DNA of 64,000 nt from Ariolimax columbianus (taxonomy: Eukaryota; Mollusca; Gastropoda; Stylommatophora; Arionidae), in assembly GCA_036924085.1 (NCBI GenBank), contig JAVGWX010000007.1:75578448-75642447 (forward strand), given 5' to 3'. Shown here in pieces: positions 14,256 to 61,495 of the stretch. Each line of letters starts with the position of its first letter. Positions within the stretch are counted from its first letter, which is position 1. Position numbers and translations under genes: made by a program. The notes beneath the pieces were generated by a model. That model did not search any database, was not told the origin of the DNA, and saw only the letters and a list, made by a program, of their open reading frames with translations.

Positions 14256-14612
14256 GGAAAAATGCCCCTGGTCTAAGGGTAGTGAGACGGACTCCTGCGT
14301 TCAGTGTCGAGCACGTTAAAAATTCCTTGCCATTTGGAAATCCAAAAGAGTAGGCTCAACTGCCGCTGCTCGGACAAAATTCAAGTTAAAAATCTACAAC
14401 AGTTATTTGTACCTTTCCCCATTTGGTTTGTTGAGAGCAGATATAGATGGCGCCTAACTAGCTGCGGGTCTATTTAGCTTTAGTGTTTCAGTCTTTTAAG
14501 ATGGACTCGCACATCGGTTAAACCACCCTCCAAGGAACTGGTTGTGTACAGACTCTGTGGAGTTTTCAAAACCAGTATAAAGTCGTTCAGTTAATACAGT
14601 ATCTCCAAGCGA
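14256..14612 (+). mobile_element. tRNA-headed SINE with LINE-like 3' tail, copy 1
   Basis: The head begins near CTGGTCTAAGGGTAGTGAGA, a box-A-like stretch, but the box-B part seen in the copy at 60873-61495 is deleted here. The body includes GGACAAAATTCAAGTTAA and GGCGCCTAACTAGCTGC. The last 60 bp, AACTGGTTGTGTACAGACTC through CCAGTATAAAG, match the 3' end of the CR1/L2-type LINE copies. It lies + strand, opposite to the copy at 61 kb. Confidence 0.75.
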
Positions 14613-15204: not shown

Positions 15205-15385
15205 GATGAATGTTACCTTTATGTCATATATACACCTTTTCGTCATCTATCCACATTTACTTCATTATCCACCTTTACGTCATTTATCCCCCTTTATATC
15301 AGCTATACGCCTTTACGTTACCTATCCACCTTTACGTCATTTATCGACTTTTACGTCATCTATCCATCTTTATGTCATCTATCCA
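15205..15385. repeat. 19-bp minisatellite with CTTTACGTCATCTATCCAC unit
   Basis: About nine units. The last ones run into the left end of the 216-bp direct repeat, and part of the same units is carried along in its second copy at 16412. Confidence 0.9.
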
Positions 15386-15577
15386 CCTTCCCCTTGATCA
15401 CCCTCTCGTTCGGAAGCCCGTCCATCGGACATTGTACGCTCGCAGGTGAAACTGATCGGGTAGCATTCTCGTGAGATGGCCGAACCCTCGCACCGTCTGT
15501 CTGTACATGTACTTCACACAGGGATACTAACCCTTTTGCAAATGTTATCTTTTTTCGATTTCGCTTTCTCCTGAAGA
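15362..15577. repeat. 216-bp direct duplication, copy 1
   Basis: Matches 16412-16627 at a constant offset of 1050 bp with four substitutions seen by eye and no gaps. On the - strand it contains a LINE C-terminal piece (RGFGHLTRMLPDQFHLRAYN). Copy 1 continues smoothly into unrelated sequence at 15578; copy 2 ends where the inverted-repeat arm begins. Confidence 0.95.
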
Positions 15578-16411
15578 CGCCATGACCTATTCGCGGACAT
15601 CTCATTTCGAAAGTGTCATTCATATACAAAGATATTGTCAGAGCCTTATATCTATTAACGAACAAAGCCTGAATTGATTGGACATACTGAAGTTCCAATA
15701 CAAACAACAAAGGATGCCACTGGAAACCGCCAAACTGAACACGACAAATGCGTGGAATAATAGCGCAATAAAGCAAAGTAAACATGAGACTAGTACGATC
15801 ATGTTGTGTCCATGGAAACGATGAAACACAGTTACACATTAAATACTGGCAGCTGTAATCGGGGGGGGGGGGGGGGGGGAGGTGTGATTGGGGGGGGGGG
15901 AGGAGGAGTATTCATTATTTGTAATATTTGTTCACATCACGATCTCTGTTGCGTAATGTTTGCTCTTGAAAAACCTATGGATACGAAAATTAACGTAAAT
16001 GAAAAATTGCAGTTTGGAAACTAGTACACTAACTAAGGTCCCCACAAAGACAAATCTTTCGCACTATCAAATGGATCGCTTCTGGAGAGCAAGCGGTGCA
16101 TTTCATTGATATAAAAAAATCAAATTAGGATACGTTGGTGGAAAAGAGTATTACATATTAACTGTACATATTAATTAAGGGAAGACACACCATTTTTCAC
16201 ACATTAATAATATACATATATTTAAAAAAAAGGTTCGAAACTATGCAACAACTGGAATTATCCCAGTAAAAATGAAGGACAAGGCGGGAAATAAAGAAGA
16301 TCTGAAACATGACATGACGGTAATGGTTAGGGTGACCTCGATTGAACGAAGCGCTACAATGCTCGAATGCTTGACAGTTACTCAGTGGAGTAATCGTTAA
16401 AGCCACTAGGA
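15578..16411. other. Unassigned stretch with poly-G tracts
   Basis: Two long G runs lie at about 15860-15879 and 15891-15901. The rest contains nothing I recognise. Confidence 0.4.
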
Positions 16412-16627
16412 ATCCATCTTTATGCCATCTATCCACCTTCCCCTTGATCACCCTCTCGTTCGGAAGCCCGTCAATCGGACATTGTACGCTCGCAGGTGAA
16501 GCTGATCGGGTAGCATTCTCGTGAGATGGCCGAACCCTCGCACCTTCTGTCTGTACATGTACTTCACACAGGGATACTAACCCTTTTGCAAATGTTATCT
16601 TTTTTCGATTTCGCTTTCTCCTGAAGA
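16412..16627. repeat. 216-bp direct duplication, copy 2
   Basis: Second copy of 15362-15577. Its right-hand end is two bases from the outer end of the left inverted-repeat arm, so both duplications share a breakpoint. Confidence 0.95.
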
Positions 16628-16629
16628 GA

Positions 16630-17148
16630 CGCCTAACAGGCTGCGAGTCTACTTTGCTCTAGTGTTTGAGTCTATTTAAATGAATTCGTACATCGTTTAA
16701 CCACCCAACGCAGTGGAGTATTAAGCTGCTCAAGCCTAGCCCGCTAAGCAGGAAATCGTTCTTCCTGCTATATCCAGCTCATACCATAACTGAGACCTGC
16801 ACACGGTCATCTGTCCCTGTAGAAGTACAGGTAGACTAAGAACTAAGAAGAACATGTTTCCACATGCCCATTGAGGACTCAATGGAGAAACTACATTACT
16901 CATTTTCTAATCGTCTGAGTAGGAGGGTCGTAATGTGTTCCATTTTTACGGTTAGCGCGCCGATACGCTACCTCGATCTAACTGCAAATGGGTACCTGGC
17001 GTAAGGCGAGGGAAGGACGGTCAGCGAGGAAATGAACTAGCCAGTCCATCCTCATCTCACGATAAGCTGAGGCCTTACATAACGAATATTCGTCATCCTC
17101 AATAGCAGTGTCTCATGTGGAACTACATTTGTCGTTTTACTCAACGTG
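16630..17148 (+). repeat. Left arm of a 2.76-kb inverted repeat (unique part)
   Basis: This 519-bp segment is the reverse complement of 18875-19393 with roughly seven substitutions noted by eye and no length change, about 98-99% identity. Its first 90 bp belong to the GGCGCCTAAC repeat family found also at 14440, 33120 and 61220. The arm lies upstream of the EF-hand exon. Confidence 0.95.
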
Positions 17149-17375
17149 TGTCTCAACCATCTTGTGTCTCAATCATCTTGTGTCTCAACCATCTTGTGTC
17201 TCAACCATCTTGTGTCTCATCCATCTTGTGTCTGAACCATCTTGTGTCTCAACTATCTTCTGTTCAAAACATTTTGTGTCTCAACCATCTTGTGTCTCAA
17301 TCATCTTGTGTCTCAACTATCTTGTGTCTCAACCATCTTGTGTCTCAACCATCTTGTGTCTCAACCATCTTGTGT
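17149..17375 (+). repeat. 16-bp satellite, left inner arm
   Basis: About 14 units of TTGTGTCTCAACCATC, with one diverged block (TCTGTTCAAAACATTTTG). It is the inner part of the left arm and is complementary to the longer array at 18371-18874. Frames reading Val-Ser-Gln-Pro-Ser-Cys repeats are artefacts. Confidence 0.95.
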
Positions 17376-17495
17376 AACCATCTTTGTAAACAATTCGTCG
17401 CAGTTTTTCTCTCCGTCATTTTATTAACTCTTGAATACATTAAAACGGCATTACCACAGACAGTTAACTATGGTCATATTATATATACTTTCTAG

Positions 17496-17639
17496 AGCTA
17501 ACTGATGCTTTCCGGACTTTTGACAAGAATGGAGACGGCAACATCTCGCGAGATGAGCTGGCATCCGTGATGAGATGTATGGGCCAAAACCCCACTCAGT
17601 CTGATGTGGAGGACATGATCAAGGAAATGGATCCTAACG
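17496..17639 (+). CDS. Calmodulin-like EF-hand protein, exon (EF1 and start of EF2)
   Basis: This 144-nt exon encodes ELTDAFRTFDKNGDGNISRD and on to MIKEMDPN: a complete first EF-hand loop (DKNGDGNISRDE, calcium ligands at positions 1, 3, 5, 9 and 12) and the start of the second. It is preceded by TTTCTAG (acceptor AG at 17494-17495) and followed by GTAAAA at 17640. Both boundaries are phase 1. From memory of the vertebrate calmodulin genes, the matching exon is also 144 nt with the same phases, which supports the chosen acceptor over the AG two bases later. The exon with the initiator ATG, expected to be about 30 coding nt, was not found in the upstream 17 kb. The exon lies in the loop of the inverted repeat 16630-19393. 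Calmodulin-like or troponin-C-like are both possible; it is not canonical calmodulin. Confidence 0.9.
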
Positions 17640-17797
17640 GTAAAACTGTTGTTGTCTGTGGGTATGCGTGTGTGTGTGCGCGCACGCGCGCGAGTCATGG
17701 AGTCATAGCTACAGACAAAGCGGGAACAATCAACATTTATAAACATCTATTTGGATACATTATTTCAGGATATTTTATGAGCGACAGTATGTATGGA

Positions 17798-17912
17798 CAG
17801 AATGTATAGACGGTGTGCATATACAGTATATATAGACGGTATGCATAGACAGTATGTACAGACGGTATGTATAGACAGTATGTATAGACAGAATGTTTAG
17901 ACGGTAGTGATG
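17798..17912. repeat. 13-bp tandem repeat, AGACGGTATGTAT unit
   Basis: About nine alternating units AGACGGTATG(T/C)AT and AGACAGTATGTAT inside the first visible EF-hand intron. Confidence 0.85.
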
Positions 17913-18370
17913 CACAGTATGTATACACAGGCAGACATTTAAAAAAGGAAGAAACAATATCATAATCACCTTCACGTGTCCTGGCCCCTCGCTGGCGTGA
18001 CCATCTTCTAGCCTACACCATCCCCACCCCCAGATACTTAACTTTCAGTGGAACGCCGTGGTAAACCATGTTTATTGCGAACAATGAATCAATGTTGTTT
18101 ATACCACTACAGTGTTCCCTATTTGAAATGACCTGCATTGTTTCCTTGTGTATCCGATTTCAACAAACGTTACTGCCAGGTTCTCATGCCCTTTCATAGC
18201 GCCAACCTGCAAGAATAACAACATGTTTGTGTCTGGATTGTTGCTGCTCTTATTCGTTTGTTTTGTACGGCTTTTTTGTCCGGCAGTGGCCATACAATTT
18301 CTGATGTAGCTTTCAAGGGCAAGGGGACACTGAAGCTTCTCTTCCACATTAATGACGAGACTCCAAATGT

Positions 18371-18874
18371 TTGGAATAGAAGATGGTTGAGACACACGAT
18401 GGTTGAGACACAAGATGGTTGAGACACAAGATGGTTGATATACAAGATGGTTGAGACACAAGATAGTTGAGACACACGATGGTTGAGATACGAAATGTTT
18501 GGAACAGAAGATAGTTGAGACACAAGATAGTTGAGACACAAGATAGTTGAGACACAAGATGGTTGAGACACAAGATGGTTGAGACACTAGATAGTTGAGA
18601 CACAAGATAGTTGAGACACAAGATGATTGAGACACAATATGATTGAGATACAAAATGTTTGGAACAGAAGATAGTTGAGACACAAGATGGTTGAGACACA
18701 AGATGGTTGAGACACAAAATGTTTTGAACAGAAGATAGTTGAGACACAAGATGGTTCAGACACAAGATGGATGAGACACAAGATGGTTGAGACACAAGAT
18801 AGTTGAGACACAAGATGATTGAGACACAAGATAGTTGACACACAAGATAGTTGAGACACAAGATGATTGAGACA
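18371..18874 (-). repeat. 16-bp satellite, right inner arm
   Basis: About 31 units of GATGGTTGAGACACAA with A/G variants, interspersed with a recurrent variant block containing AAATGTTTGGAACAGAAG. It is complementary to, and about twice as long as, the left array. Long - strand frames across it are artefacts of the 16-bp period. Confidence 0.95.
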
Positions 18875-19393
18875 CACGTTGAGTAAAACGACAAATGTAG
18901 TTCCACATGAGACACTGCTGTTGAGGATGACGAATATTCGTTATGTAAGGCCTCAGCTTATCGTGAGATGAGGATGGACTGGCTAGTTCATTTCCTCGCT
19001 GACCGTCCTTCCCTCGCCTTACGCCAGGTACCCATTTGCAGTTAGATCGAGGTAGCGTATCGGCGCGTTAACCGTAAAAATGGAACACATTACGACCCTC
19101 CTACTCAGACGATTAGAAAATGAGTAATATAGTTTCTCCATTGAGTCCTCAATGGGCATGTGGAAACATGTTCTTCTTAGTTCTTAGTCTACCTGTACTT
19201 CTACAGGGACAGATGACCGTGTGCAGGTCTCAGCTATGGTATGAGCTGGATATAGCCGGAAGAACGATTTCCTACTTAGCGGGCTAGGCTTGAGCAGCTT
19301 AATACTCCACTGCGTTGGGTGGTTAAACGATGTACGAATTCATCTAAATAGACTCAAACACTAGAGCAAAGTAGACTCGCAGCCTGTTAGGCG
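18875..19393 (-). repeat. Right arm of the inverted repeat (unique part)
   Basis: Reverse complement of 16630-17148. Unlike the left arm, the homology to the dispersed GGCGCC-family repeat does not stop at its outer end but continues through 19530. The right arm therefore looks like the original and the left arm the derived copy. Confidence 0.95.
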
Positions 19394-19530
19394 CCATCAT
19401 GCTGCTCTAAACAAACCACCTAACCATGCGGGTGTTATGCCACGTCACACAGTTAGTCGCCTCTCACGACATGCTCTCTGTGGGGCAGTGGTGCTATTAT
19501 TGTCCTTGTTATACACAAAGACCCTGGCAG
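19394..19530 (-). repeat. Continuation of the dispersed GGCGCC-family repeat
   Basis: CTCTAAACAAACCACCTAAC, then GACATGCTCTCTGTGGGGCA and ACACAAAGACCC are shared with 33128-33260. No counterpart exists beside the left arm at 16630. Confidence 0.8.
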
Positions 19531-20188
19531 ACCACACGTGGAAACACGTCAGTACGTATATTTAAAGACGTGGGCATAAATTAGGATGTGATGAACGAGA
19601 TAAACGTACCAAATTATTTCGTTGCTGTATTGTTAAAATGAGCGAACTATTGTCATTATTTTCCGAACGTTTAAATAATATGATAGGAAAATTGTGAGGA
19701 CTAGTATTAATGTATGAGATTACAAATATCATGATAGTGTTGAAAAACAACCACACAATAGACAGTGAATGTTAGACTACGTAGTGCGTACTAGAAATTA
19801 CAGTTTATTAGCGGAAATATCGTCTGAAGAATGAACACCATAACACGTATAAGATTATTAGTATGAGTATTTACGATCAGCAACTTACGTCATACAAATG
19901 ATTCTGTAGTCACAGAAGATGTTGGATCAAATCTAACGTTTTTAAATTTGGTTTTACTGCGAAGCGTTCAACATTGTGTGGTTTATGAGAGAAGGGGTAA
20001 CGCATGGAATTGGCGGTGCGTTCAATTAATCCTGGGTCTGGAAAAAGGATGAAAACGGTTAAACAAGAGTGTTACTCCTTAACTAAGTGTGAAGATTGTT
20101 TGTGTACTTGCATGTTGTTTGATGTTATATAATTACTAACATTAACAAGTAATGGAATCATATTAGCAGTTATTGTCTACCTTTACAG
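19531..20188 (+). other. EF-hand intron, remaining part
   Basis: AT-rich intron sequence with nothing recognised. It ends in TGTCTACCTTTACAG, a good polypyrimidine-AG acceptor. Confidence 0.6.
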
Positions 20189-20288
20189 ACAACGGTAGAA
20201 TAGATTTCAAAGAATTTGTCGATTGCATGTCCAAACGAGGAATAAAAAGCCAGGAACAAGAAACAGACGAACTTATTGCAGCATTCAA
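20189..20288 (+). CDS. Calmodulin-like EF-hand protein, exon (rest of EF2 and linker)
   Basis: After CTTTACAG this 100-nt exon joins in phase (G from the previous exon plus AC makes Asp) to give DPNDNGRIDFKE, a canonical second EF-hand loop, then FVDCMSKRGIKSQEQETDEL and IAAFK. The stretch corresponds to the central helix of calmodulin but is shorter and differs strongly in sequence. The exon ends AA|GTTAGT, phase 2. This donor falls before the EF3 loop, not inside it as in vertebrate calmodulin genes, so the intron has moved or is independent. Confidence 0.9.
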
Positions 20289-23896: not shown

Positions 23897-24071
23897 AGTT
23901 TTCGACCGTGATGGGAATGGCTACATTACTGCAGACGAACTTCGGGACAGGATGACCTGTCTGGGAGAGCGGATGACAAATGACGAGGTGGATGAAATGA
24001 TTGAAGAAGCAGACTTTAATGGCGACGGCCGAGTCAACTACGAGGAATTTGTGCGTATCATGACTTGCTAG
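23897..24071 (+). CDS. Calmodulin-like EF-hand protein, terminal exon (EF3 and EF4)
   Basis: TTTCTCAG at 23889-23896 is the acceptor; the first base A completes AA|A (Lys). The exon reads [20 protein letters not shown], then [20 protein letters not shown] and EFVRIMTC followed by TAG at 24069-24071. EF3 ([12 protein letters not shown]) and EF4 ([12 protein letters not shown]) are both canonical calcium loops. With the two upstream exons the visible protein is 139 residues, so with about ten N-terminal residues it would match calmodulin length. The C-terminal lobe is closer to calmodulin than the N-terminal lobe. A possible ATTAAA poly(A) signal lies at 24176. Confidence 0.93.
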
Positions 24072-32929: not shown

Positions 32930-33260
32930 TCGACTTGTACTTCTGCTGTGCAGGTCCCAGCTCTGGTATCATCTGGATGTAGTCGGGAGGAGGATTTCCG
33001 GCTTAAGCAGCTTATTTACTCCGCTGCTCTGGGACAAGTGCCGCAGAGGGTGGTTAACTGATTTGCGAATCCATCTTAATAGACTCAAACACTAGAGCAA
33101 AGTGACAAACGGCCTGCTAGGCGCCATCTCTGCTGCCCTAAACAAACCACCTAACCATGGCCGGTGTTATGCTTGGTGACACAGCCTCTTACAACATGCT
33201 CTCTGTGGGGCAGTCATGCTATTCTTGTCCGTGTCATACACAAAGACCCAGGAGGACCAA
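32930..33260 (-). repeat. Dispersed GGCGCC-family repeat, full-looking copy
   Basis: It covers both the part contained in the inverted-repeat arms (AGGTCCCAGCTCTGGTATCA through AATAGACTCAAACACTAGAG) and the part found only beside the right arm (AACAAACCACCTAACCATG to ACACAAAGACCC). This is the dispersed copy used to judge which arm is original. Confidence 0.75.
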
Positions 33261-45678: not shown

Positions 45679-47590
45679 CATTCTAGACCTTTGTGATAAA
45701 AGAAGGTCACTGAAAAAACACAATCACCCACCGGAGGAGGTCGGCAGTTATAAAGAGGTCAAGAAAGCCATAAAACAAAAGATGAGAGAGGCGAAAGAAG
45801 CGTGGATATGTGAGCAATGCACAAACATCAAAGAGAGACTAAACAGAAATGATGCTAAAGGAGCATACAAGGTGGTCAAAGAACTGGTAACACCAAGACA
45901 AAGCAGGAACCTTATGATCCATGATAAAAGCGGCAAGTGCCTTATTGGGGAAAATGACGTACTGGCACGTTGGACAGAGTACTTCTGAGCTATATAACTA
46001 TGAAGGAGGAAACAAACCCGAAAAAACAGTTCCCCCAACACCAACAAATATAGAGGATAACCAACTGATAACGAAGGATGAGGTAATTGCAGCGGAAAAG
46101 ACATTGAGAAGAGGGAAGGCGGCCGACGTGGACAATATACCAACAGAGCTCTTACAAGCAGGTGGAGAGGTAGTGGTGGAAGGCCTGACACGCATCTGCA
46201 ACAAAATATGGGCGACAGGAAAATGGCCGGACTTCTGGACGAAATTAATAGTTATACCGTTACATAAGTCTGGAAACCTAAAGCTGTGCCAAAATTAAAG
46301 AACAATAAGCCTTATCAGCCAACCTAGCAAGGTCATGCTTAGATTAATCCTAAACCGATTGAAACCCCAAGCAGAGAACATCATTGCCGAGGAGCAAGCA
46401 GGGTTCAGACAGGGAAGAAGCACTACAGAACAGATATTTAATTTAAGGCTGCTAAGCGAGAAATATCTAGAACAGCAGCAAACACTGTATCATGTGTTTG
46501 TGGATTTTAAGAAGGCGTTTGATAGGGTATGGCATAAAGCGCTTTGGGCAACCATGAGGATATATAATATTATAACGGTCCTTGAACACCTGTATGACAA
46601 GGCGTCTAGCGTAATTCTTGTGAATGGGAGGCGAGGGGACTGGTTTCGCACATCAGTTGGTGTGAGAAAGGGGTGTACACTCTCTCCAACTCTTTTCAAT
46701 ATATTCCTGGAAGGAATTATGAGTGAGGCACTTGGAGGTCACGTTGGTACTGTCAAGATAGAGGGCCGAACGATTACCAACCTTCGTTTTACAGATGATA
46801 TCGACGGGTTGGCGGGTTCAGAAGCAGAACTCCAGGAATGGGTCAGAAGGTTCGATGAAACAGCTCTTGACTATGGTATGGAGATTAATGCTGGAAAGAC
46901 AAAATTAATGACCAACAACGCCATGGGCTTCAACAGCAGGATAAAAGCTAACAGTCAGGAACTCAAAGTGGTCGACCGTTTTAAATATCTTGGATCGATT
47001 GTCAGTGATGAAGGATCAAAATGTGAGGTGTTGGCCAGAATAGCACAAACAACAGCGGCGCTTGCACGGCGTAACAAAATCTGGCAAGATAAACGGTTAG
47101 CACTACACATGAAAATCAGATTAATGCGTACACTGGTCCTGTCAATATTCCTCTATGCGTGTGAGACATGGACAGTTACAGCTGACCTTCAACGAAGGAT
47201 ACAGGCCTTGGAGATGAGATGTTTCCGAAAACTTTTAAACGTCACGTACAAAGATTGAGTTACAAATGAGGAAATTTGAGATAGAATTACAACAGTAATA
47301 AGGCCTTTCGAAGACTTCTTGGCAACTGTCAAAAGAAGGAAATTCACTTGGTACGGTCACATATTGAGATCAAATGGTCTTGCAAATACAATCCTCCACG
47401 GAAAGATGCATGGCAGACGACGAAGAGCCCGGGACAAAAAGAGATGGGAGGACAACATAAAAGAATGGACCAGTTTCCGACCAGAAGAGTCACAGGCAGC
47501 GGCATCTGACAGAGAGGGGTGGCGTGGGATTGTAAGGATGTCTTCATGTGTGCCCCAGCGACCTTACCGGTTACGGGATGACCTGACCTG
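45679..47590 (+). mobile_element. RTE-type LINE (subfamily A), 1.9 kb, 5'-truncated
   Basis: This is the longest RTE copy in the window. It starts inside the linker before RT (LCDKRRSLKKHNHPPEEVGS), crosses a frameshift near 45985 and a stop at about 46296, then stays open for 307 codons (46335-47258): EEQAGFRQGRSTTEQIFNLR, VDFKKAFDRVWHKALWA, SVGVRKGCTLSPTLFN and LRFTDDIDGLAG, where the active site reads FTDD instead of the usual F/YADD. After an in-frame stop at 47256 the C-terminus RRKFTWYGHILRSNGLANTI follows. The 3' end is TTACGGGATGACCTGACCTG. ATAGTGA occurs on both sides (45672-45678 and 47591-47597) and may be the target duplication. The endonuclease is absent. Confidence 0.9.
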
Positions 47591-49570: not shown

Positions 49571-52500
49571 CTGGTGACAAGATAGTCCACTCTAAGTTTC
49601 ATGCAGTATGTAAATTAGCAGATTTGTTACATAAACAGCAGATTCCCAGGTGCAAAAGGTATGAAGTATAAACACATTCTCCCTGGCTCAACACATAATG
49701 TATAAACAAACGCTCTCAGATGCAACAGATATACTTCTTCTTCTTCTTCTGCGTACACAGTCAGACAGTAACCATTATTTTCTCGAAAAAAGCGGCGGTC
49801 ATCCTGAGACTCTCGCCACAACCATAGAGCTTGTCTTGCAGTTCCACTGGCAATGGCCACATCTGCTCTCTCTGATCCTCATATGTCGGGCAGTTCTGCA
49901 GCAGATGTTCAGTGGTCATTTTACCAGTACCGCAAGGGCATTCGTCGGTACACCCTATCTTCAATTTGTTGAAAAGGTGGTACCTCAGTCTGTTGTGGCC
50001 AGTGCGAAGTCTGAAGACAACGACCTGCTCTCTTCGGTTCAACTGGTAATAGGCATCGTTTTTGGTGTAACCAGTATGTTCGGTTTCCCATTTGGACATG
50101 TACCTGGCTTTGATAAGCCGTTTTGACTCTTCGTACGTCATACTGGTATCTATTTGTGGTAGCCTTGCACCTTCTTTTGCCAGTCTGTCTGCCTCCTCTT
50201 TGCCTTGGATGTTGCAGTGTGACGGAACCCACTGTACCACTACCCTTTTTGGTGCGGACTGCTGGCACAGTTTGCAGAGTGCTGCTCTTAAGTCATTAAG
50301 CTCAGTGTTTTTCTGGCTTTTTAGCGCTGTGACTACTTCGAGAGCATCTGTCAGCAGGACTATATGGCTCTCATTTTCACTGTGTGTTACCATTTCTTCC
50401 ACTGCCGCCCTCAGTGCCTCTGCCTCTGAAATTGCTTGTGTACTTACCAGTAGCGAATGACAGTGTTATTTTTCTGCCATTTGGTAGGTTCAGGAATGCT
50501 CCTGCCCCTCCGTTCTGTGTAGTGTTTGTTACAGAACCGTCGGTGTATGCATGGGTCCAGTCCATGCTTGGGTAGCTTTTCGTTATGAAGCTTAGGGTAG
50601 TGTCTCTCCTTTCTTTTTCACTCTGGCAGTTTTTGTTTGCAATACCTGGTATATTTTCTACCACCTCTGGAAATATATCCTGCCTCCAAGTAGGTTTTCG
50701 TACAGTAGTGATGGGTTTTGGTGTTGTTAGTGCGTTTATGGGATCTTCGTGCATCTTTGCTTTGGCTATTTCTGCAAAGTTTCTCCGCTTTAGTTTCCCA
50801 TTTCCCAAATTGTTTAGTCTCTGGTACATTGGATGGTCCGTCAGTCTTCGGAGTTTCTCTGACTGCAGCTGGGCTCTGCAGTCTCTTCTATCGGTCATGG
50901 ATTGCAGTTTTGTAATCTTTTCAAGTTCTACAATTGGCGTTGACTTCATGCCACCTGTTATAATTCTCATGGCTTGATTTTGAAGTTTGTTAACTTTATC
51001 GAAGTTCGCCTTCGCTGCTGTTGTCCATGCCGCAATGCCATACTCGAGAACTGGTCTCACTCTTCCAGTGTACAGTTTCTTTAGTATGCCTTCGTCTGCT
51101 CCCCAGCTTGTGCCAGCAAGTTTCCTCATGATCGCCATTCTTTCTCTGGCTTTCATTCGGTTTCTCTCAATCTGACTTTTCCATGTCATGCGCCGATCAA
51201 ATGTGACTCCCAGATAGGTTGGGTTGTCGTTTGGCTGCAGGATTTTGCCATTTAGGCTTAATTTGGTACTTTGGGGTTTTAATGAGAGCGAGAATATTGT
51301 GCACGTGGTTTTCTCCTCGTTTATTTTGACCAGCCATGAGTTCGCCCACTCTTCCAGCGATGTTAGGGCCGTTTGCATCCGATTTCTTGCTATGGTGAGA
51401 TTCTTTTCAGAGGTCCACATAGCCAGATCGTCTGCAAACATTGAGCTATGGACTCTTCTTGGTATATTCTCTGTAATATCGTTTATATATACCAGGAAGA
51501 GTGTGGGTGACAATACTCTCCCTTGGGGTACTCCCTGCTCGAGTGTCACCTTTTTGCTCATCTGCCCTTGTACTTGGACTCTGGCCGTTCTTTGTTTGAG
51601 GTAGTGGTTGATCCACTTGTACATCTTCCCACAGACATCACTTCTTCTTAGCTTGACTCTAAGTCCATCCTTCCAGACTTTGTCAAATGCCTTTTCCAGA
51701 TCCACCCAAACAGCTACTGTGTGTTTCTGTGCCTGGTAGGCATCTTCTATCTCCTGGGCTATGAGGATGACCTGGTCCTCAGTGGATCTGTGCTGTCTAA
51801 AGCCGGCTTGCTGTGGAATTAGTATTCGTTTTTCTTCCAGATGCCACATCAGTCTGGTGTTTATCATCCGTTCCATCAGCTTGCCGACACAGCTCAGTAG
51901 GCTTATGGGCCTGTATCCATTCGGATCTGTTTTGTCCTTTCCTGTTTTTGGTACTGGTACCAGTATTGCATCTTTCCATGCCTGGGGTACAATACCCCTT
52001 TTCCAGCTTTGGTTCAGGACTGATAGTAGTTTTTTCTTCGCTGTTTGGCCCAGCCCCATCAGCATTTCGTTTGTTATCCCGTCTTTTCCGGGAGATTTCC
52101 TTTTCTTTAGTGTTCTCATAGCCTCTTCCATTTCGCGCATTGTTAGTTTGGCCATCATGTGCTCTTCAGGAGCCGTATTTATGTTTTCGTGACCCTTTAG
52201 CTCTTCGCTAATGTCTGTATGCTTATCTGCAGGGACCTCGATGTGGTTTGCTCTGGCATAGTGATCGACAAAGGCGTTTGCGGCTTTCTTACCTGTGATC
52301 AAGTTCTCGCCCTGCTTGATAGTGATTTGTTTATTTGACGGGGTTTCGTCATTCATGGCTCTGACTAGCTTCCATAGCTTGTTCCCTTCTTTGTCCAGGT
52401 TTAAACTTTCCGTTTTATTTTTCCAACTTTCTCTTGCTGTTTGCTTGAGAGTGTGTTTGTACTTCGCCGCCGCGGCTTTGAGGGCGATGTTTGCCTCCAT

Positions 52501-54071
52501 GGATTTATCTCGTTCTGCCATGTTCCTAGCATTTGTTACTGCATCTTCCACTTTCTGTAACTCATCATTCCAGTAGGGCTTATAGTTTTTCCTGGCTCCT
52601 CTTGGGATGGTTTCAGTGGCGGCTTGCATTATTGCCTTGCTTAGGCTCTCTACCATGGGCTTCATTTTGGTGTTTCGTGTGTTGATGGTTTCACACAGCC
52701 CATCTGTCAGGATTGCAAATCTGTCCCAGTCGGCTCGTTTGTAATTCCAACGTGGGAGCGGTTTTGTTTCCTGTGGGCCTACTTCCATGTCAATGGTTAG
52801 CCTGATCGGCCTGTGGTCGCTACCTGCCAGTTGGTTTAGCACCTGGCGGTCTATTTTATAGTGTATGTCCTGTGTGGAGAAGGCCAAATCTGGAGTCGAG
52901 GTGGTATGCCATGTTCTTGAATAGAAGCTAGGGCTATCCTCCGGCCTATTGATTAGGGAGAGATTTGCATCTATCTCCCAATCTTCCACTTCGTCACCTC
53001 TGCTGTCTGTGTCAGAGTATCCCCATCTCTCCGAGTGGCTGTTGAAATCTCCAACTACTATGCAGTTGGAGTCTCTGACCTCCATACTCGAGAGCGATAG
53101 GTCTCTGTTTGGTGGTCCGTACAGATTGAAAATGCGGAGCTTCGTCTCTTGAGCCATTATGTCAACTCCTACAATTTCTGCTTGTCCGGTGTGATTGACA
53201 GGTACCGCGCTACTCGGTATGCTGTTTCTGGTCAGTATCAGGACCCCTCCTTTGTGGCCTTCTCTATCTAGACGGAAGGTCTGGTATCCTCTGATTGAGA
53301 ATTTATGGTTATTGTTGAGGTGCGTTTCCTGGATACATGCCACGTCAATCTTACCTTCATGCAGGTGGTGTGTTAGGGAAAGTTTTTTGTTAATGACTCC
53401 CTCCGCATTCCACTGTAGTATTTTGAGGGTCTTGAGGTTTTGGCCAATAGACGTTGCCCCATAGCCATGTGCCTTGACTCAACAGATATACAATATAAAC
53501 ACATTCTCCCACTAAACATATGAATGATGTGAATACACTTTCTTATGTTTAACGAGCATACTTTAAAATATGTGACAAATATTCTCTGGTGAAACATACA
53601 CACAAAAAAGATTTATAAAAACATACTCTCGGAAATGTCAAACATATTATATCTAAATTTGATTTGAATCATGAAATCACTAGAAATAATAAGTAACAAA
53701 ATGTACAATATAGTTGTATAATATATTTAGTGTTACAGCTAGATTCTGCTCTGATCTATTTAAATCCAAATCACAAATACATGTGAAGGCAATCCAAAAA
53801 AACAGATATTGGCACCAGGGATGAAGTGTTGCCAACATCCTTCTACCAAGTCTCAGAAGTATTTTTTTTAAGATGGGTAACAAATTCCATTTTTCATTGC
53901 CAAGCCTCTCATTAGCTGCAGTCTTGTACCCATTTACAGTACTTACGTAGGCCTTCTCTATAAGGTGTAGGATCCAATGCAATATATGACCATGTTCCCT
54001 AATATTTAAAAGTGATCTGTTCTCTTAGTCGCTCCTCTTTTAACCCTTGGGGATGTAGAGGTCTTTTTCTT

Positions 54072-54132
<61 letters not shown>

Positions 54133-57100
54133 TTGCAATCGAGTATGCAGACAAACAGGTAGCTGGCCTGTTATCTTTTACATGATGGAGCGGTCTTCAT
54201 GTAGGCCATTATTGGGTAGGAATTGGCATTACCTTTGAAATTGTTGCCCGAACAGCGTCTAACAGTTTGCTCTTTACAATGTTCTTCTTCTTCTTCTTCT
54301 GCGTACACAGTCAGACAGTAACCATTATTTTTTCGAAAAAAGCGGCGGTCATCCTGAGACTCTCGCCACTACCATAGAGCTTGTCTTGCAGTTCCACTGG
54401 CAATGGCCACATCTGCTCTCTCTGATCCTCGTATGTCGGGCAGTTCTGCAGCAGATGTTCAGTGGTCATTTTACCAGTACCGCACGGGCATTCGTCGGTA
54501 CACCCTATCTTCAATTTGTTGAAGAGGTGGTACCTCAGTCTGTTGTGGCCAGTGCGAAGTCTGAAGACAACGACCTGCTCTCTTCGGTTCAACTGGTAAT
54601 AGGCATCGTTTTTGGTGTAACCAGTATGTTCGGTTTCCCATTTGGACATGTACCTGGCTTTGATAAGCCGTTTTGACTCTTCGTACGTCATACTGGTATC
54701 TATTTGTGGTAGCCTTGCACCTTCTTTTGCCAGTCTGTCTGCCTCCTCGTTGCCTTGGATGTTGCAGTGTGACGGAACCCACTGTACCACTACCCTTTTT
54801 GGTGCGGACTGTTGGCACAGTTTGCAGAGTGCTGCTCTTAAGTCATTAAGCTCAGTGTTTTTCTGGCTTTTTAGCGCTGTGACTACTTCGAGAGCATCTG
54901 TCAGCAGGACTATATGGCTCTCATTTTCACTGTGTGTTGCCATTTCTTCCACTGCCGCCCTCAGTGCCTCTGCCTCTGCTCTGAAATTGCTCGTGTACTT
55001 ACCAGTAGCGAATGACAGTGTTATTTTTCTGCCATTTGGTAGGTTCAGGAATGCTCCTGCCCCTCCGTTCTGTGTAGTGTTTGTTACAGAACCGTCGGTG
55101 TATGCATGGGTCCAGTCCATGCTTGGGTAGCTTTTCGTTATGAAGCTTAGGGTAGTGTCTCTCCTTTCTTTTTCGGTCTGGCAGTTTTTGTTTGCAATAC
55201 CTGGTATATTTTCTACCACCTCTGGAAATATATCCTGCCTCCAAGTAGGTTTTCGTACAGTATTGATGGGTTTTGGTGTTGTTAGTGCGTTTATGGGATC
55301 TTCGTGCATCTTTGCTTTGGCTATTTCTGCAAAGTTTCTCCGCTTTAGTTTCCCAGTTCCCAGATTGCTTAGCCTCTGGTACATTGGATGGTCCGTCAGT
55401 CTTCGGAGTTTCTCTGACTGCAGCTGGGCTCTGCAGTCTCTTCTGTCGGTCATGGATTGCAGTTTTGTAATCTTTTCAAGTTCTACAATTGGCGTTGACT
55501 TCATGCCACCTGTTATGATTCTCATGGCTTGGTTTTGAAGTTTGTTAACTTTATCGAAGTTCGCCTTCGCTGCTGTTGTCCATGCCGCGATGCCATACTC
55601 GAGAACTGGTCTCACTCTTCCAGTGTACAGTTTCTTTAGTATGCCTTCGTCTGCTCCCCAGCTTGTGCCAGCAAGTTTCCTCATGATCGCCATTCTTTCT
55701 CTGGCTTTCATTCGGTTTCTCTCAATCTGACTTTTCCATGTCATGCGCCGATCAAATGTGACTCCCAGATAGGTTAGGTTGTCGTTTGGCTGCAGGATTT
55801 TGCCATTTAGGCTTAGTTTGGTACTTTGGGGTTTTAATGAGAGCGAGAATATTGTGCACGTGGTTTTCTCCTCGTTTATTTTGACCAGCCATGAGTTCGC
55901 CCACTCTTCCAGCGATGTTAGGGCCGTTTGCATCCGATTTCTTGCTATGGTGAGATTCTTTTCAGAGGTCCACATAGCCAGATCGTCTGCAAACATTGAG
56001 CTATGGACTCTTCTTGGTATATTCTCTGTAATATCGTTTATATATACCAGGAAGAGTGTGGGTGACAGTACTCCCCCTTGGGGTACTCCCTGCTCGAGTG
56101 TCACCTTTTTGCTCATCTGCCCTTGTACTTGGACTCTGGCCGTTCTTTGTTTGAGGTAGTGGTTGATCCACTTGTACATCTTCCCACAAACATCACTTCT
56201 TCTTAGCTTGACTCTAAGTCCATCCTTCCAGACTTTGTCAAATGCCTTTTCCAGATCCACCCAAACAGCTACTGTGTGTTTCTGTGCCTGGTAGGCATCT
56301 TCTATCTCTTGGGCTATGAGGATGACCTGGTCCTCAGTGGATCTGTGCTGTCTAAAGCCGGCTTGCTGTGGAATTAGTATTCGTTTTTCTTCCAGATGCC
56401 ACATCAGTCTGGTGTTTATCATCCGTTCCATCAGCTTGCCGACACAGCTCAGTAGGCTTATGGGCCTGTATCCATTCGGATCTGTTTTGTCCTTTCCTGT
56501 TTTTGGTACTGGTACCAGTATTGCATCTTTCCATGCCTGGGGTACAATACCCCTTTTCCAGCTTTGGTTCAGGACTGATAGTAGTTTTTTCTTCGCTGTT
56601 TGGCCCAGCCCCATCAGCATTTCGTTTGTTATCCCGTCTTTTCTGGGAGATTTCCTTCTCTTTAGTGTTCTCATAGCCTCTTCCATTTCGCGCATTGTTA
56701 GTTTGGCCATCATGTGCTCTTCAGGAGCCGTATTTATGTTTTCGTGCCCCTTTAGCTCTTCGCTAATGTCTGTATGCTTATCTGCAGGGACCTCGATGTG
56801 GTTTGCTCTGGCATAGTGATCGACAAAGGCGTTTGCGGCTTTCTTACCTGTGATCAAGTTCTCGCCTTGCTTGATAGTAATTTGTTTATTTGACGGGGTT
56901 TCGTCGTTCATGGCTCTGACTAGCTTCCATAGCTTGTTCCCTTCTTTGTCCAGGTTTAAACTTTCCGTTTTATTTTTCCAACTTTCTCTTGCTGTTTGCT
57001 TGAGAGTGTGTTTGTACTTCGCCGCGGCGGCTTTGAGGGCGATGTTTGCCTCCACGGATTTTTCTCGTTCTGCCATGTTCCTAGCAATTGTTACTGCATC

Positions 57101-59895
57101 TTCCACTTTCTGTAACTCATCATTCCAGTAGGGCTTATAGTTTTTCCTAGCTCCTCTTGGGATGGTTTCAGTGGCGGCTTGCATTATTGCCTTGCTTAGG
57201 CTCTCTACCATGGGCTTCATTTTGGTGTTTCGTGTGTTGATGGTTTCACACAGCCCATCTGTCAGGATTGCAAATCTGTCCCAGTCGGCTCGTTTGTAAT
57301 TCCAACGTGGGAGCGGTTTTGTTTCCTGTGGGCCTACTTCCATGTCAATGGTTAGCCTGATCGGCCTGTGGTCGCTACCTGCCAGTTGGTTTAGCACCTG
57401 GCGGTCTATTTTATAGTGTATGTCCTGTGTGGAGAAGGCCAAATCTGGAGTCGAGGTGGTATGCCATGTTCTTGAATAGAAGCTAGGGCTATCCTCCGGC
57501 CTATTGATTAGGGAGAGATTTGCATCTATCTCCCAATCTTCCACTTCGTCACCTCTGCTGTCTGTGTCAGAGTATCCCCATCTCTCCAAGTGGCTGTTGA
57601 AATCTCCAACCACTATGCAGTTGGAGTCTCTGACCTCCATACTCGAGAGCGATAGGTCTCTGTTTGGTGGTCCGTACAGATTGAAAATGCGGAGCTTCGT
57701 CTCTTGAGCCATTATGTCAACTCCTACAATTTCTGCTTGTCCGGTGTGATTGACAGGTACCGCGCTACTCGGTATGCTGTTTCTGGTCAGTATCAGGACC
57801 CCTCCTTTGTGGCCTTCTCTATCTAGACGGAAAGTCTGGTATCCTCTGATTGAGAATTTATGGTTATTGTTGAGGTGCGTTTCCTGGATACATGCCACGT
57901 CAATCTTACCTTCATGCAGGTGATGTGTTAGGGAAAGTTTTTTGTTAATGACCTTTACAATGTTCAACTGCCATGAGTTCTTTTACATGCAGAGCGTGTT
58001 TACGGATCTCAGAGCTTATCGTCAGCCTCTGATAGACTAGACTGCTAATCTCACCTCCTTTGAATTCAGGGGATGCTTGAAACTTGCGGAATTTGAACAA
58101 TAGCCATTTTGTGCATCCAAGAGGCGAGCTCTCATTTATAGTAATCTATCCATTTGTTAGTGATATTGTCTAAATATGAAATTATTAGGACTAAAGTAAA
58201 GCACTATTTAATCTTAGCTTAGTGTATTTAATCTTAGCTTAAAGTTAAGGTTACTTGCAACACAAGTTAGTATAGAGACATTACAAAAATACGGGACTGA
58301 CATGAACTTTTGAATCACAACTATTTAATTCTATGGACAATGAGAACACTAACTACATCACCCTGCATAAATTACATTGTATGTTATACATGAGAACCTC
58401 TCATACTTATCCACGAGTGCTTCATAATCATCTACAACAGGCTCATCCACCTCAAAGATGGACAGCCGGTACTTTGACTGAATATTATTTGGGTGTCCAA
58501 ACAAACCCAAGTGAACTGGCCGAGGCATGATAACAGCGATAGGAATTACATCAATGCCACAAGTTTCTGATTTCAGATCATAATTTGAGTAATCCGGCTG
58601 TGTAACCTGCAAGATAACAGATCAACCAAAGAAATGTTAACAAGGAATAGCTTATGTGATCTAAATGATCAATGAATAAATGTTTAAAAGCTGTCAATGA
58701 ACCTAGCGTGTTCAAAACAACGCTTATGTGAAGCACGAACAAATCTAACAAAAATATATAAACATACATTCTAGTATATAAATTTATTCTAAACATGTAA
58801 AATAATGTTAATGATAAACTTCTAGTATAAAGCAATTGGGTTCAAACAATAAAAACTATTTATGAAACATTAAATGCTATAGTGGAGTCAAATATACAGT
58901 TAAAAGAAGACAACAGTAAGGGACTCATAACTGTCCTAGTGAAGACCTTGAAAATAGGCTACATCCATCCAGCCTGGCTGAGAGAATAGATATCGAAGAG
59001 TGAAGGCAAACCCTGTCCCAAAATTGTGCCATGCTGAAGCAAGATTTATCAGTCCAAAAGGTGTAGATAATATCGCAGCTTCGCTGTAAACTATGACACA
59101 ACATGACAAAACTTCCTTTTAAGGATGAACAATGAAGAAGAAATGATATCGTACACATAACTCATATCTTTTGCAAGTGAAATTATGTTGCACTGTTTCG
59201 TTAAGTCTGTACATCCAATTTCAACATGCAATTCTTTATGGTATGCATTCTCTATCTGTGATCAGCCTACCTGCAGATCAGCAGTTTAATGTCTCATTTA
59301 GTCTGACCTTATACCCTTTAACCTGCTCAACTTGGGACACTCAGTCGATACAAGTGACACTGAAAGCAGACCTTTTAGGGTCAGAGGGACACACATGTGC
59401 CTCTACCATGACAAATAAGAGAGCAAATAGTAACATTAGGATCAGCTAAGCATACTGACCAAGACCCCTCACCTCCAATCCTCACATGGTTCCTAGAAAC
59501 AGGTTGTAAGATAGCAGCCTGGCAAAGAAGGTGGAGGCCGACACTGTAATCTCCATAAGGGTGAGCTTACTGAGGAGCCCCATAACAACAACAGACATGA
59601 CAAATGAGGAGGAATGGGAGAGAGGAAACTTTGTCTAATCATTAGCCAAAATAAAATGGAAGTGCAATTTCATTATCATTTTTTTTGTGTGTACACTTAC
59701 TGAAGAACTAACATAAATATCCACATCTCCCTGCAAGCTTGTAAGATCAACTCGAAGATTTCCTGGGCGCTGAATCTTGTAGAAAGTGAAGTTCTCAGCC
59801 CCAATATCACCATCAAGAGTTTGAATTAACCATTCTCTGCTACACAAGCACACATAAAATTGCAACGTCAAAACCACCACTGTTGTCCAAAGCAT
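49390..59895 (-). CDS. C6orf120: UPF0669 (C6orf120-like) protein, gene span
   Basis: Three - strand exons, 59895-59701, 58606-58407 and 49570-49390, join in frame to 576 nt including stop, 191 codons. The product begins MLWTTVVVLTLQFYVCLCSR, a signal peptide, followed by EWLIQTLDGDIGAENFTFYK with an N-glycosylation sequon at Asn35, then GDVDIYVSSS, DYSNYDLKSETCG, PVHLGLFGHPNNIQSKYRL and a charged Ser/Lys region before a hydrophobic end LPLWWNILIDTLKFIVE. The order and length agree with the animal UPF0669 family, whose human member is described as a secreted N-glycoprotein of unsettled function. The second intron (49571-58406) is 8.8 kb and houses two I-group LINE copies in the same orientation. 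A possible AATAAA lies at 49187-49192 (- strand). No promoter element was identified. Confidence 0.9.
49735..53479 (-). mobile_element. I-group LINE copy 1, 3745 bp, 12-bp target duplication
   Basis: The insertion lies between perfect repeats of CAACAGATATAC (49723-49734 and 53480-53491) and ends in (GAA)5 on the - strand. It contains the complete start of the endonuclease domain (KILQWNAEG), lacking in copy 2, but no ORF1, so it is 5'-truncated. It sits in intron 2 of the UPF0669 gene, in the same orientation. Confidence 0.96.
49761..53470 (-). pseudogene. Broken EN-RT-RNase H polyprotein of LINE copy 1
   Basis: The frame is open from the 5' end of the insertion to about 50430, covering endonuclease (CIQETH, IVVGDFNSH, GSDHRPI), RT (SPGKDGI, AGFRQHRSTEDQ, VWVDLEKAFDKVW, MFADDLAMW) and the beginning of RNase H (YTDGS). 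A 5-bp deletion near 50427, at a CTCTG repeat, shifts the frame just before the catalytic Glu. The original frame resumes as EEMVTHSENESHIVLLTDAL and runs to the end at 49761. A Gly-to-Arg change in the RT motif (QGRVLSP instead of QGGVLSP) and IQGKEEAD in place of IQGNEEAD are further differences from copy 2. Confidence 0.93.
53492..54271. other. Intron stretch between the two LINE copies
   Basis: A 3'-end fragment of the LINE family of 4270-4880 lies at about 54027-54066 (TAGTCGCTCCTCTT, GATGTAGAGGTC). It is followed by (AT)n at 54073-54131. The rest is unassigned. Confidence 0.6.
54073..54131. repeat. AT microsatellite
   Basis: About 29 uninterrupted AT dinucleotides. Confidence 0.95.
54285..57952 (-). 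mobile_element. I-group LINE copy 2, 3668 bp, 13-bp target duplication
   Basis: The insertion is bounded by perfect repeats of CTTTACAATGTTC (54272-54284 and 57953-57965) and ends in (GAA)5. It is 77 bp shorter than copy 1 at the 5' end. The two copies differ at only about 1-2% of positions by eye but have different target duplications, so they are independent recent insertions and not a segmental duplication. Confidence 0.96.
54311..57952 (-). CDS. EN-RT-RNase H polyprotein of LINE copy 2, open to the stop
   Basis: A single frame of more than 1,200 codons runs from the 5' boundary to 54311. Counting from 57967 (the first five codons lie in the target duplication): endonuclease residues about 6-215 with CIQETH (Glu29), VVGDFNSH (119-126) and GSDHRP (197-202); RT about 430-740 with QQAGFRQHRSTED (534-546), VWVDLEKAFDKVW (568-580), EQGVPQGGVLSP (625-636), FADD (659-662) and YLGVTF (733-738); RNase H about 953-1085 with Asp958, Glu998 or Glu1000, Asp1024, His1067 and Asp1077; and a C-x-C-x8-H-x4-C motif at 1160-1176. 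Damage is limited to the missing endonuclease start (no WNAEG) and SPRKDG for SPGKDG at 440-445. No methionine start of its own is visible, so expression would need host sequence. Confidence 0.94.
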   Translation of the reverse strand, partial: VINKKLSLTHHLHEGKIDVACIQETHLNNNHKFSIRGYQTFRLDREGHKGGVLILTRNSIPSSAVPVNHTGQAEIVGVDIMAQETKLRIFNLYGPPNRDLSLSSMEVRDSNCIVVGDFNSHLERWGYSDTDSRGDEVEDWEIDANLSLINRPEDSPSFYSRTWHTTSTPDLAFSTQDIHYKIDRQVLNQLAGSDHRPIRLTIDMEVGPQETKPLPRWNYKRADWDRFAILTDGLCETINTRNTKMKPMVESLSKAIMQAATETIPRGARKNYKPYWNDELQKVEDAVTIARNMAEREKSVEANIALKAAAAKYKHTLKQTARESWKNKTESLNLDKEGNKLWKLVRAMNDETPSNKQITIKQGENLITGKKAANAFVDHYARANHIEVPADKHTDISEELKGHENINTAPEEHMMAKLTMREMEEAMRTLKRRKSPRKDGITNEMLMGLGQTAKKKLLSVLNQSWKRGIVPQAWKDAILVPVPKTGKDKTDPNGYRPISLLSCVGKLMERMINTRLMWHLEEKRILIPQQAGFRQHRSTEDQVILIAQEIEDAYQAQKHTVAVWVDLEKAFDKVWKDGLRVKLRRSDVCGKMYKWINHYLKQRTARVQVQGQMSKKVTLEQGVPQGGVLSPTLFLVYINDITENIPRRVHSSMFADDLAMWTSEKNLTIARNRMQTALTSLEEWANSWLVKINEEKTTCTIFSLSLKPQSTKLSLNGKILQPNDNLTYLGVTFDRRMTWKSQIERNRMKARERMAIMRKLAGTSWGADEGILKKLYTGRVRPVLEYGIAAWTTAAKANFDKVNKLQNQAMRIITGGMKSTPIVELEKITKLQSMTDRRDCRAQLQSEKLRRLTDHPMYQRLSNLGTGKLKRRNFAEIAKAKMHEDPINALTTPKPINTVRKPTWRQDIFPEVVENIPGIANKNCQTEKERRDTTLSFITKSYPSMDWTHAYTDGSVTNTTQNGGAGAFLNLPNGRKITLSFATGKYTSNFRAEAEALRAAVEEMATHSENESHIVLLTDALEVVTALKSQKNTELNDLRAALCKLCQQSAPKRVVVQWVPSHCNIQGNEEADRLAKEGARLPQIDTSMTYEESKRLIKARYMSKWETEHTGYTKNDAYYQLNRREQVVVFRLRTGHNRLRYHLFNKLKIGCTDECPCGTGKMTTEHLLQNCPTYEDQREQMWPLPVELQDKLYGSGESLRMTAAFFEKIMVTV
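57966..58406 (-). other. UPF0669 intron 2, 5' part
   Basis: Between the donor at 58406 and LINE copy 2. No motif recognised apart from a GTATTTAATCTTAGCTTA duplication near 58208-58240. Confidence 0.5.
58407..58606 (-). CDS. C6orf120: UPF0669 protein, exon 2 (central conserved domain)
   Basis: 200 nt after ATCTTGCAG. It encodes VTQPDYSNYDLKSETCGIDV and on to FEVDEPVVDDYEALVD, leaving two bases (AA) at the donor GATAA|GTATGA. The single base opening exon 3 completes Lys132. Reading on past the donor would end at a stop near 58358, which does not fit the family. Confidence 0.9.
58931..59145 (+). repeat. Dispersed GAA-tailed repeat, copy 4, in UPF0669 intron 1
   Basis: CAGTCCAAAAGGTGTAGATA and GCAGCTTCGCTGTAAACTAT match copy 1. 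The 3' end AAGGATGAACAATGAAGAAG resembles the end of the I-group LINE fragment at 13400 (GAGGATGAACGAAGAAG). Confidence 0.7.
59405..59600. repeat. Low-copy dispersed segment in UPF0669 intron 1
   Basis: AGTAACATTAGGATCAGC, GCAGCCTGGCAAAGAAGGTG and CACTGTAATCTCCATAAG find diverged counterparts at 39970-40110. The element type is unknown. Confidence 0.4.
59701..59895 (-). CDS. C6orf120: UPF0669 protein, exon 1 (signal peptide and N-terminal domain)
   Basis: 195 nt, 65 codons, ending in phase 0 at TCTTCA|GTAAGT. The start at 59895 is chosen because it places a hydrophobic signal peptide directly before the conserved EWLIQ region. The frame remains open upstream to 60123, but that extension is unlike the family and AT-rich, so it is probably 5' UTR. 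Confidence 0.9.
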
Positions 59896-60872: not shown

Positions 60873-61495
60873 TAACTTAATGTCTTTATACTGGTTTAGA
60901 AGACAGCAGAGTCTGTGTACAACCAGTTTCTTGGAGGGTGGTTTAACCGATGTGCGAATCCATCTTAAGGACAGGTTAAACCCCCAAATTGAATTAGAGT
61001 ATATCTGCTGGAAACAATGCTTTTAGTAGGTACATAATTCTTAAAGATTCAAGGAAAATTAGTTTTTAGAGGTAAATTAAAGGTATATTCAGAAAAAAAT
61101 ACTGAAAATGAGGTATTTTGGGCAGAAAACAGTCAAATTTATAACCATAACTTTCTCAAGAGATTTCAAAGACAAATAAAGATAGCTTAATAGACTCAAA
61201 TACTAGAGCTAAGTAGATCCGCAGCCAGTTAGGCGCCATATTTAGCTGCTCTTAACAAACCCCCTGGGGAAAGGTATAAATAATTTGGGTAGATTCTTAA
61301 CTTGAATTTTGTCCGGGCAGCGGTCATTAAGCCTACTCTTTTCGATTTCCAACTGCCGAGGAATTTTTAGAGTGCTCAACACTACACAGAAATCAGGGAA
61401 ATTTTTACCAGAAGATCCATGTGAAAAAAATCCCGTCATTCGAACCCACGACCTCCGAGACGAATACCTTACCTTGAGACCACTGTTCAACAAAC
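60873..61495 (-). mobile_element. tRNA-headed SINE with LINE-like 3' tail, copy 2, interrupted
   Basis: On the - strand the head runs from about 61490 with GTGGTCTCAAGGTAAGG (box A-like) and GTGGGTTCGAATGACGG (box B-like). The body contains GGACAAAATTCAAGTTAA and ATGGCGCCTAACTGGCTG. The tail at 60873-60935 (+ strand CTTTATACTGGTTTAGAAG, CAGAGTCTGTGTACAACCAG) matches the CR1/L2-type LINE 3' end. A 217-bp foreign piece at 60969-61185 splits the body. Confidence 0.85.
60969..61190. mobile_element. 217-bp insertion duplicating CTTAA inside the SINE
   Basis: Other copies of this repeat read CATCTTAATAGACTC without a break. Here CTTAA occurs at 60964-60968 and again at 61186-61190, with 217 bp of AT-rich sequence between. 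The precise duplication indicates transposition into a TTAA-containing target. The ends do not form an obvious terminal inverted repeat, so a piggyBac-type origin is only a possibility. Confidence 0.8.

What the first reader, a model, noticed from the sequence alone, without database searches (positions are those of the whole stretch)
16630..19393. EF-hand exon in the loop of a long, almost perfect inverted repeat: candidate circular RNA or dsRNA-editing locus
Seen: the 144-nt EF-hand exon (17496-17639) is flanked in its two introns by complementary 519-bp arms (about 98-99% identical by eye), each extended inward by complementary 16-bp satellite arrays. Known: complementary sequence in introns on both sides of an exon favours back-splicing, and long intramolecular dsRNA attracts ADAR editing. 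Inference: the pre-mRNA should fold across the exon, promoting a single-exon circle, exon skipping or editing.
Basis: partly seen in the sequence, partly recalled or inferred. Interest (0 to 1): 0.8.

Follow-up and report, generated by a model that had tools for sequence, protein, structure and literature searches.

The report
Copied DNA making an exon-spanning hairpin
In what looks like a snail genome, a DNA-copying accident seems to have pasted a back-to-front copy of one intron's sequence into the intron on the other side of an exon, so the gene's RNA should fold into a long hairpin around that exon; whether this changes the gene's output is untested.

Summary
Arms 16630-17146 and 18877-19393 are complementary over 517 bp with 7 mismatches and no gap (98.6%). 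The match continues into the 16-bp satellites. Between them lies a single-copy 144-nt coding exon (17496-17639) of a calmodulin-like gene, closest to a Candidula land-snail protein.

The outer end of the left arm cuts through a dispersed ~365-bp repeat that is intact on the right (19170-19540), so the right arm is the source and the left arm a truncated inverted copy. Abutting it, 2 bp away, 16412-16627 is a direct copy of 15362-15577 (98.1%), also cut in mid-repeat. So 964 bp of intron consists of two nearby templates joined end to end, with short matches at the joints: the signature of template-switching repair, not of a transposon.

Expected effect (inferred): pre-mRNA hairpin, ADAR editing, perhaps some in-frame exon skipping or circularisation. 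No RNA data were available; published work finds exon-flanking inverted repeats only modestly predictive of circles. Most likely a recent, possibly neutral structural variant with testable RNA consequences.

The parts
15362..15577 (+). source A: template of the first inserted piece, part of an old dispersed repeat running on to about 15615
   Evidence: 98.1% direct match to 16412-16627; of 39 remote matches 21 continue past 15577 to 15607-15615, 18 stop earlier (15494-15559), none stops within 10 bp of 15577 (40 of 240 candidates scored); 7 of the 21 aligned
16412..16627 (+). copy A': direct copy of 15362-15577, cut off in mid-repeat
   Evidence: 98.1% over 216 bp, 4 mismatches; homology ends at 16627 while source and the 7 aligned remote copies continue
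16628..16629 (.). joint of copies A' and B': two extra bases GA; the CGCC that follows (16630-16633) is present in both sources
   Evidence: side-by-side junction listing
16630..17375 (-). copy B': inverted copy of source B (left arm plus left satellite); strict unit register reaches about 18669 in the source, BLAST extends to 18604
   Evidence: 510 of 517 identical in the arm; outer end cuts the dispersed repeat; extents
17147..17375 (+). left 16-bp satellite array, 14.3 copies
   Evidence: unit order shared with the right array in units 4-11
17376..17388 (+). return joint; AACCATCTT shared with the satellite unit, CCATCTTT shared with the start of source A
17496..17639 (+). 144-nt EF-hand exon (EF1 and the start of EF2), in the loop; 48 codons, so skipping it keeps the frame
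   Evidence: the 385 bp around it have no second full copy in the genome, only three partial matches
18380..18876 (+). right 16-bp satellite array, 31.1 copies (source side)
18877..19393 (+). right arm (source B)
19170..19540 (.). dispersed ~365-bp repeat, intact here and crossing the outer end of the inverted repeat
   Evidence: 5 of 5 remote copies compared align across 19393; three weaker relatives inside the window do so too
20189..20288 (+). next coding exon of the calmodulin-like gene
23897..24071 (+). last coding exon (EF3, EF4, stop)

Best explanation
A repair or replication fork in the intron before the exon switched template. It re-copied 216 bp from about 1 kb upstream (15362-15577, same strand), jumped about 4 kb to the opposite strand inside a dispersed repeat at 19393, copied some 700-790 bp backwards into the 16-bp satellite, and returned to the intron at about 17376. 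The event left an inverted repeat on either side of a coding exon of a calmodulin-like gene. Shown: both copies, their truncation in mid-repeat, their abutment, their near-equal identities. Inferred: that it was one event and of this mechanism; that the pre-mRNA forms the hairpin; that ADAR edits the duplex; that some transcripts skip the exon in frame or form a 144-nt circle. Default reading of function: a recent, possibly neutral variant.
For: The right side carries the intact dispersed repeat, the left arm the truncated one. Source A continues as dispersed repeat, copy A' is cut off. Copies A' and B' lie 2 bp apart and differ from their sources by similar amounts: 4 of 216 and 7 of 517. Short matches at the joints: CGCC; CCATCTTT, a run of 8 or more with the same probe being found at 461 of 62,915 window positions; AACCATCTT, 9 or more at 68 of 62,915. 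Fold. ADAR-type deaminase domains in the genome. A like signature is described for MMBIR templated insertions: several templates possible, and 2-12 bp of microhomology, average 3.7 bp, at 80% of the junctions of 103 cancer events (PMC8421209, passages seen).
Against: No relative or allele without the insert was found, so the empty site is not shown; the loop side is single-copy here, so no paralogue can supply it. The GA at the middle joint belongs to neither source. The 9-bp match at the return joint is partly circular, since that border is itself set by likeness to the satellite. The last three full left satellite units do not follow the right array, so the inner end of copy B' is not sharp. 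The pieces are much longer than the short, within-100-bp ones that the MMBSearch paper was built for. Of the 4 differences in the repeat part, by majority of 5 remote copies 3 look derived in the copy and 1 in the source, too few to test anything. No RNA evidence for any effect.
Confidence: 0.78

Rival explanations
1. One reading: a functional exon-circle, exon-skipping or editing locus, possibly kept by selection.
For: Long, near-perfect arms with the inner duplex end about 120 nt before the acceptor; exon length 144 is a multiple of three, so skipping keeps the frame and removes EF-hand 1 and part of EF-hand 2. Precedents: TBXT (PMC10901737, abstract read), zip-2 (PMC8330042, abstract and section 8 read).
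Against: No transcript data. Arms differ by only 1.4%, so the structure looks young and conservation cannot be shown. PMC12093144 (passages seen): repeat length does not separate circularising exons, and ADAR and DHX9 are reported to limit back-splicing.
Confidence: 0.2
2. Two separate events: a tandem duplication making A', then an inverted duplication landing beside it.
For: Two sources in two orientations.
Against: The copies lie 2 bp apart, both are cut in mid-repeat, and their divergence is nearly equal.
Confidence: 0.12
3. A mobile element with long terminal inverted repeats (foldback or TIR type) enclosing the exon.
For: Long inverted arms with tandem repeats inside resemble foldback elements (recalled).
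Against: The repeat at the outer end runs on past 19393 in 5 of 5 remote copies compared; 46 of 46 remote rows for the whole arm lie within its first 227 bp (40 of 5298 candidates scored); no second copy of the loop; no target-site duplication seen by eye at the outer ends.
Confidence: 0.02
4. Assembly artefact: a fold-back or haplotype misjoin.
For: One assembly only; no reads at hand. A misjoined second haplotype could show about 1% difference.
Against: The insert holds two pieces from different places and orientations, each with its own mismatches, and two satellite units fewer in the left copy.
Confidence: 0.06
5. The hairpin serves as a Dicer substrate giving siRNAs (hairpin-RNA locus).
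For: 262 uninterrupted stacked pairs predicted.
Against: The duplex is intronic and no target was sought or identified; no small-RNA data.
Confidence: 0.04

Closest known systems
Templated insertions by MMBIR/FoSTeS template switching (PMC8421209, passages seen; PMC7954356, passages seen)
   Same: Insert built from nearby templates, one of them inverted, with short matches at the joints; PMC7954356 notes that switching makes inverted repeats prone to form hairpins
   Different: Fixed in a genome assembly and long (216 and some 700-790 bp); breakpoints lie in dispersed repeats and satellites; the result encloses a coding exon
TBXT intron Alu pair of apes (PMC10901737, abstract read)
   Same: A new intronic copy pairs with an older one in reverse orientation; an exon lies between them
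   Different: There an Alu insertion with shown exon skipping; here a templated local copy with effect unknown
Sry and HIPK3 circular RNAs with flanking inverted repeats (PMC12093144, passages seen)
   Same: Exon enclosed by complementary flanking arms
   Different: Circles shown there; none shown here, and the exon is only 144 nt
Foldback/TIR transposons (recalled)
   Same: Long inverted arms with internal tandem repeats
   Different: Arm ends here are not element ends; the dispersed repeat crosses them

Membership tests
Template-switch templated insertion (MMBIR/FoSTeS) | Insert copied from nearby templates | tested here: met
   Two local templates, 98.1% and 98.6%
Template-switch templated insertion (MMBIR/FoSTeS) | Microhomology at the joints | tested here: inconclusive
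   CGCC, CCATCTTT, AACCATCTT; two extra bases at one joint; the third match is partly circular
Template-switch templated insertion (MMBIR/FoSTeS) | Direction: one side is derived and truncated | tested here: met
   Repeats cut at 16627 and 16630, continuing at the sources
Template-switch templated insertion (MMBIR/FoSTeS) | Empty ancestral site | tested here: inconclusive
   No second full copy of the loop side in this genome; the tool holds no relatives of this genome
Inverted-repeat-driven circular RNA | Complementary sequence in both flanking introns | tested here: met
   the upstream intron is inferred from the splice phase, its 5' exon was not found
Inverted-repeat-driven circular RNA | Back-splice junction reads | not testable with these tools
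   No RNA data
ADAR-edited dsRNA locus | ADAR deaminase encoded by the genome | tested here: inconclusive
   13 PF02137 matches over the cut-off on four contigs; the family also holds non-ADAR members (recalled) and the genes were not assembled or classified
ADAR-edited dsRNA locus | Clustered A-to-G differences between RNA and DNA | not testable with these tools
   No RNA data
Foldback/TIR transposon | Arm ends coincide with element ends | tested here: not met
   Dispersed repeat crosses 19393 in 5 of 5 remote copies compared
Foldback/TIR transposon | Other copies of the whole unit | tested here: inconclusive
   None seen for the arm plus satellite, with 40 of 5298 candidates scored; the search with the inner arm alone did not complete

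The most novel reading that the evidence does not exclude
A single germline template-switch event created a new splicing variant in one step: an inverted intronic copy that makes the calmodulin-like gene skip, circularise or edit around one EF-hand exon, a templated-insertion counterpart of the TBXT Alu case without any transposition.
Probability: 0.2. Interest if true: 0.65.

Novelty: new member of a known kind. Interest (0 to 1): 0.4.

Why it matters
Exon-flanking inverted repeats are often put down to pairs of transposons (in humans, Alus). Here the source, the copy, the direction and the joints can all be read, and they point to replication-type template switching as another route to such structures. 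If RNA data show skipping or circles, it would be a clean case of one mutation creating a splice variant; if not, it is a natural control for how little a 517-bp, 98.6% duplex can matter.

Tried and rejected
Foldback/TIR transposon: rejected because the dispersed repeat crosses the arm's outer end. Exon captured by a mobile element or duplicated: rejected, the exon and its flanks have only three partial matches elsewhere, two of 72% and one of 40 bp. Known RNA family or tRNA in the window: nothing in Rfam at gathering score, no tRNA by ARAGORN. The first exon of the gene was looked for by a loose protein motif from 20 kb before the window to 17.4 kb and not found (one hit looked alike but has the wrong splice phase, judged by eye), so the gene's 5' end is open. 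Whether the inner arm (16855-17146) alone occurs elsewhere could not be learned. Dating was left out: no rate for this organism.

No claim is made that such cases are absent from print. One search counted 239 papers with at least three of five terms; the 10 listed are circular-RNA papers by title and were not opened.

Full report
Check of the observation. The arms 16630-17146 and 18877-19393 align over 517 bp with 510 identities, 7 mismatches and no gap. Both continue into a 16-bp satellite, and the arrays share unit order in part: left units 4-11 correspond to right units 6-13, including rare variants, with one base difference; the last three full left units do not follow the right array. The repeat finder gives one inverted pair of 753 nt, 94% complementary, 1258 nt apart. 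In the 64-kb window 45 inverted pairs reach E 1e-10; the next best outside this locus is 82% over 519 bp with arms 20 kb apart. The predicted RNA fold of 16600-19420 pairs 512 of 517 left-arm bases with the right arm and 227 of 229 left satellite bases with the right array, at -1749.6 kcal/mol; seven other stretches of equal length in the window give -635 to -745, and the segment without the left insert (2066 nt) -517.5.

The gene. Exon 17496-17639 has an AG acceptor and a GT donor and encodes EF-hand 1 and the start of EF-hand 2. With 20189-20288 and 23897-24071, whose borders also bear AG and GT, it gives 138 residues and a stop, aligned without gaps to a Candidula unifasciata protein at 70-71%. 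The first exon was not found. The exon has 144 bases, so skipping it keeps the frame. A 385-bp query around it finds itself and three partial matches of 40-126 bp, so the exon is single-copy and no paralogue offers an empty site.

Direction of the duplication. A search with the left arm and satellite gave 50 rows: 4 local and 46 remote (40 of 5298 candidates scored). Of the 46, 38 run from query position 1-3 to 203-227 and 8 are short pieces (within 157-211) in one tandem cluster; none reaches the inner part of the arm. I compared the 5 remote copies that were handed out as loci with the window: in 5 of 5 the homology runs along the right side from 19170-19179 through 19393 to 19464-19544, while on the left side it stops at 16630-16631. 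Three weaker relatives inside the window, at 14424-14528, 32947-33259 and 61186-61265, also match across 19393. So the dispersed repeat is whole on the right and cut on the left: the right arm is the source. In the repeat part the two arms differ at four sites; by majority of the five remote copies three look derived on the left and one on the right, which tests nothing.

The second copy. 16412-16627 matches 15362-15577 in direct orientation at 98.1% over 216 bp. This too is a dispersed repeat: of 39 remote rows (40 of 240 candidates scored), 21 continue past 15577, to 15607-15615, 18 stop earlier, and none ends within 10 bp of it. Seven that continue were aligned; source and remote copies go on, the local copy does not. 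Copy A' ends at 16627 and copy B' begins at 16630.

The joints. At the middle joint CGCC occurs in both sources, with an extra GA in the product. At the outer joints, the start of source A and the return site share CCATCTTT, and satellite unit and return site share AACCATCTT; runs of that length or more with the same probes occur at 461 and 68 of 62,915 other window positions. The second figure leans on a border that was itself set by likeness to the satellite, so I count the joints as supporting, not proving.

Mechanism. Two templates, two orientations, nearly abutting ends, cuts inside repeats and near-equal divergence fit one template-switching event (MMBIR/FoSTeS kind). PMC8421209 (passages seen) describes insertions from one or several templates, with 2-12 bp of microhomology (average 3.7) at 80% of the junctions of 103 analysed cancer events; [quoted passage not shown] The present pieces are longer than those studied there.

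Consequences. The genome holds ADAR-type deaminase domains: 13 matches to PF02137 on contigs C2, C15, C16 and C17, all over the cut-off; they were not classified. Molluscan ADAR editing is reported in PMC6651903 (abstract read). Complementary intronic stretches promote circles and skipping in C. elegans (PMC8330042, abstract and section 8 read), and an inverted Alu pair is tied to exon skipping in TBXT (PMC10901737, abstract read). Against strong claims, PMC12093144 (passages seen) finds only modest predictive power, about 100 complementary nucleotides sufficient in HIPK3, and limits set by ADAR and DHX9. So I expect hairpin formation and some editing, and regard skipping or a circle as possible; none is shown.

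Verdict. The RNA outcome is an open and simple test.

Noticed in passing
50377-53478 and 54311-57982, - strand: Two long reading frames, alike by eye, of a non-LTR retrotransposon type (1033 and 1223 aa, stop to stop); the first shifts frame near its end. Type judged by eye from the translation.
   Followed up: no
46299-47258, + strand: A 319-aa open frame that looks, by eye, like a reverse transcriptase piece of another element.
   Followed up: no
17783-17930: A 13-bp tandem array (GACAGTATGTATA) in the loop between exon and right arm.
   Followed up: no
G000 contigs C2, C15, C16, C17: PF02137 deaminase domain matches at several places, some with stops inside the matched stretch (which may be intron read-through), suggesting several genes or some decayed copies.
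   Followed up: no
18380-18876: In the right satellite a TCTGTTCCAAACATTT-like variant recurs at units 10, 14, 24 and 32, a hint of higher-order repeats.
   Followed up: no
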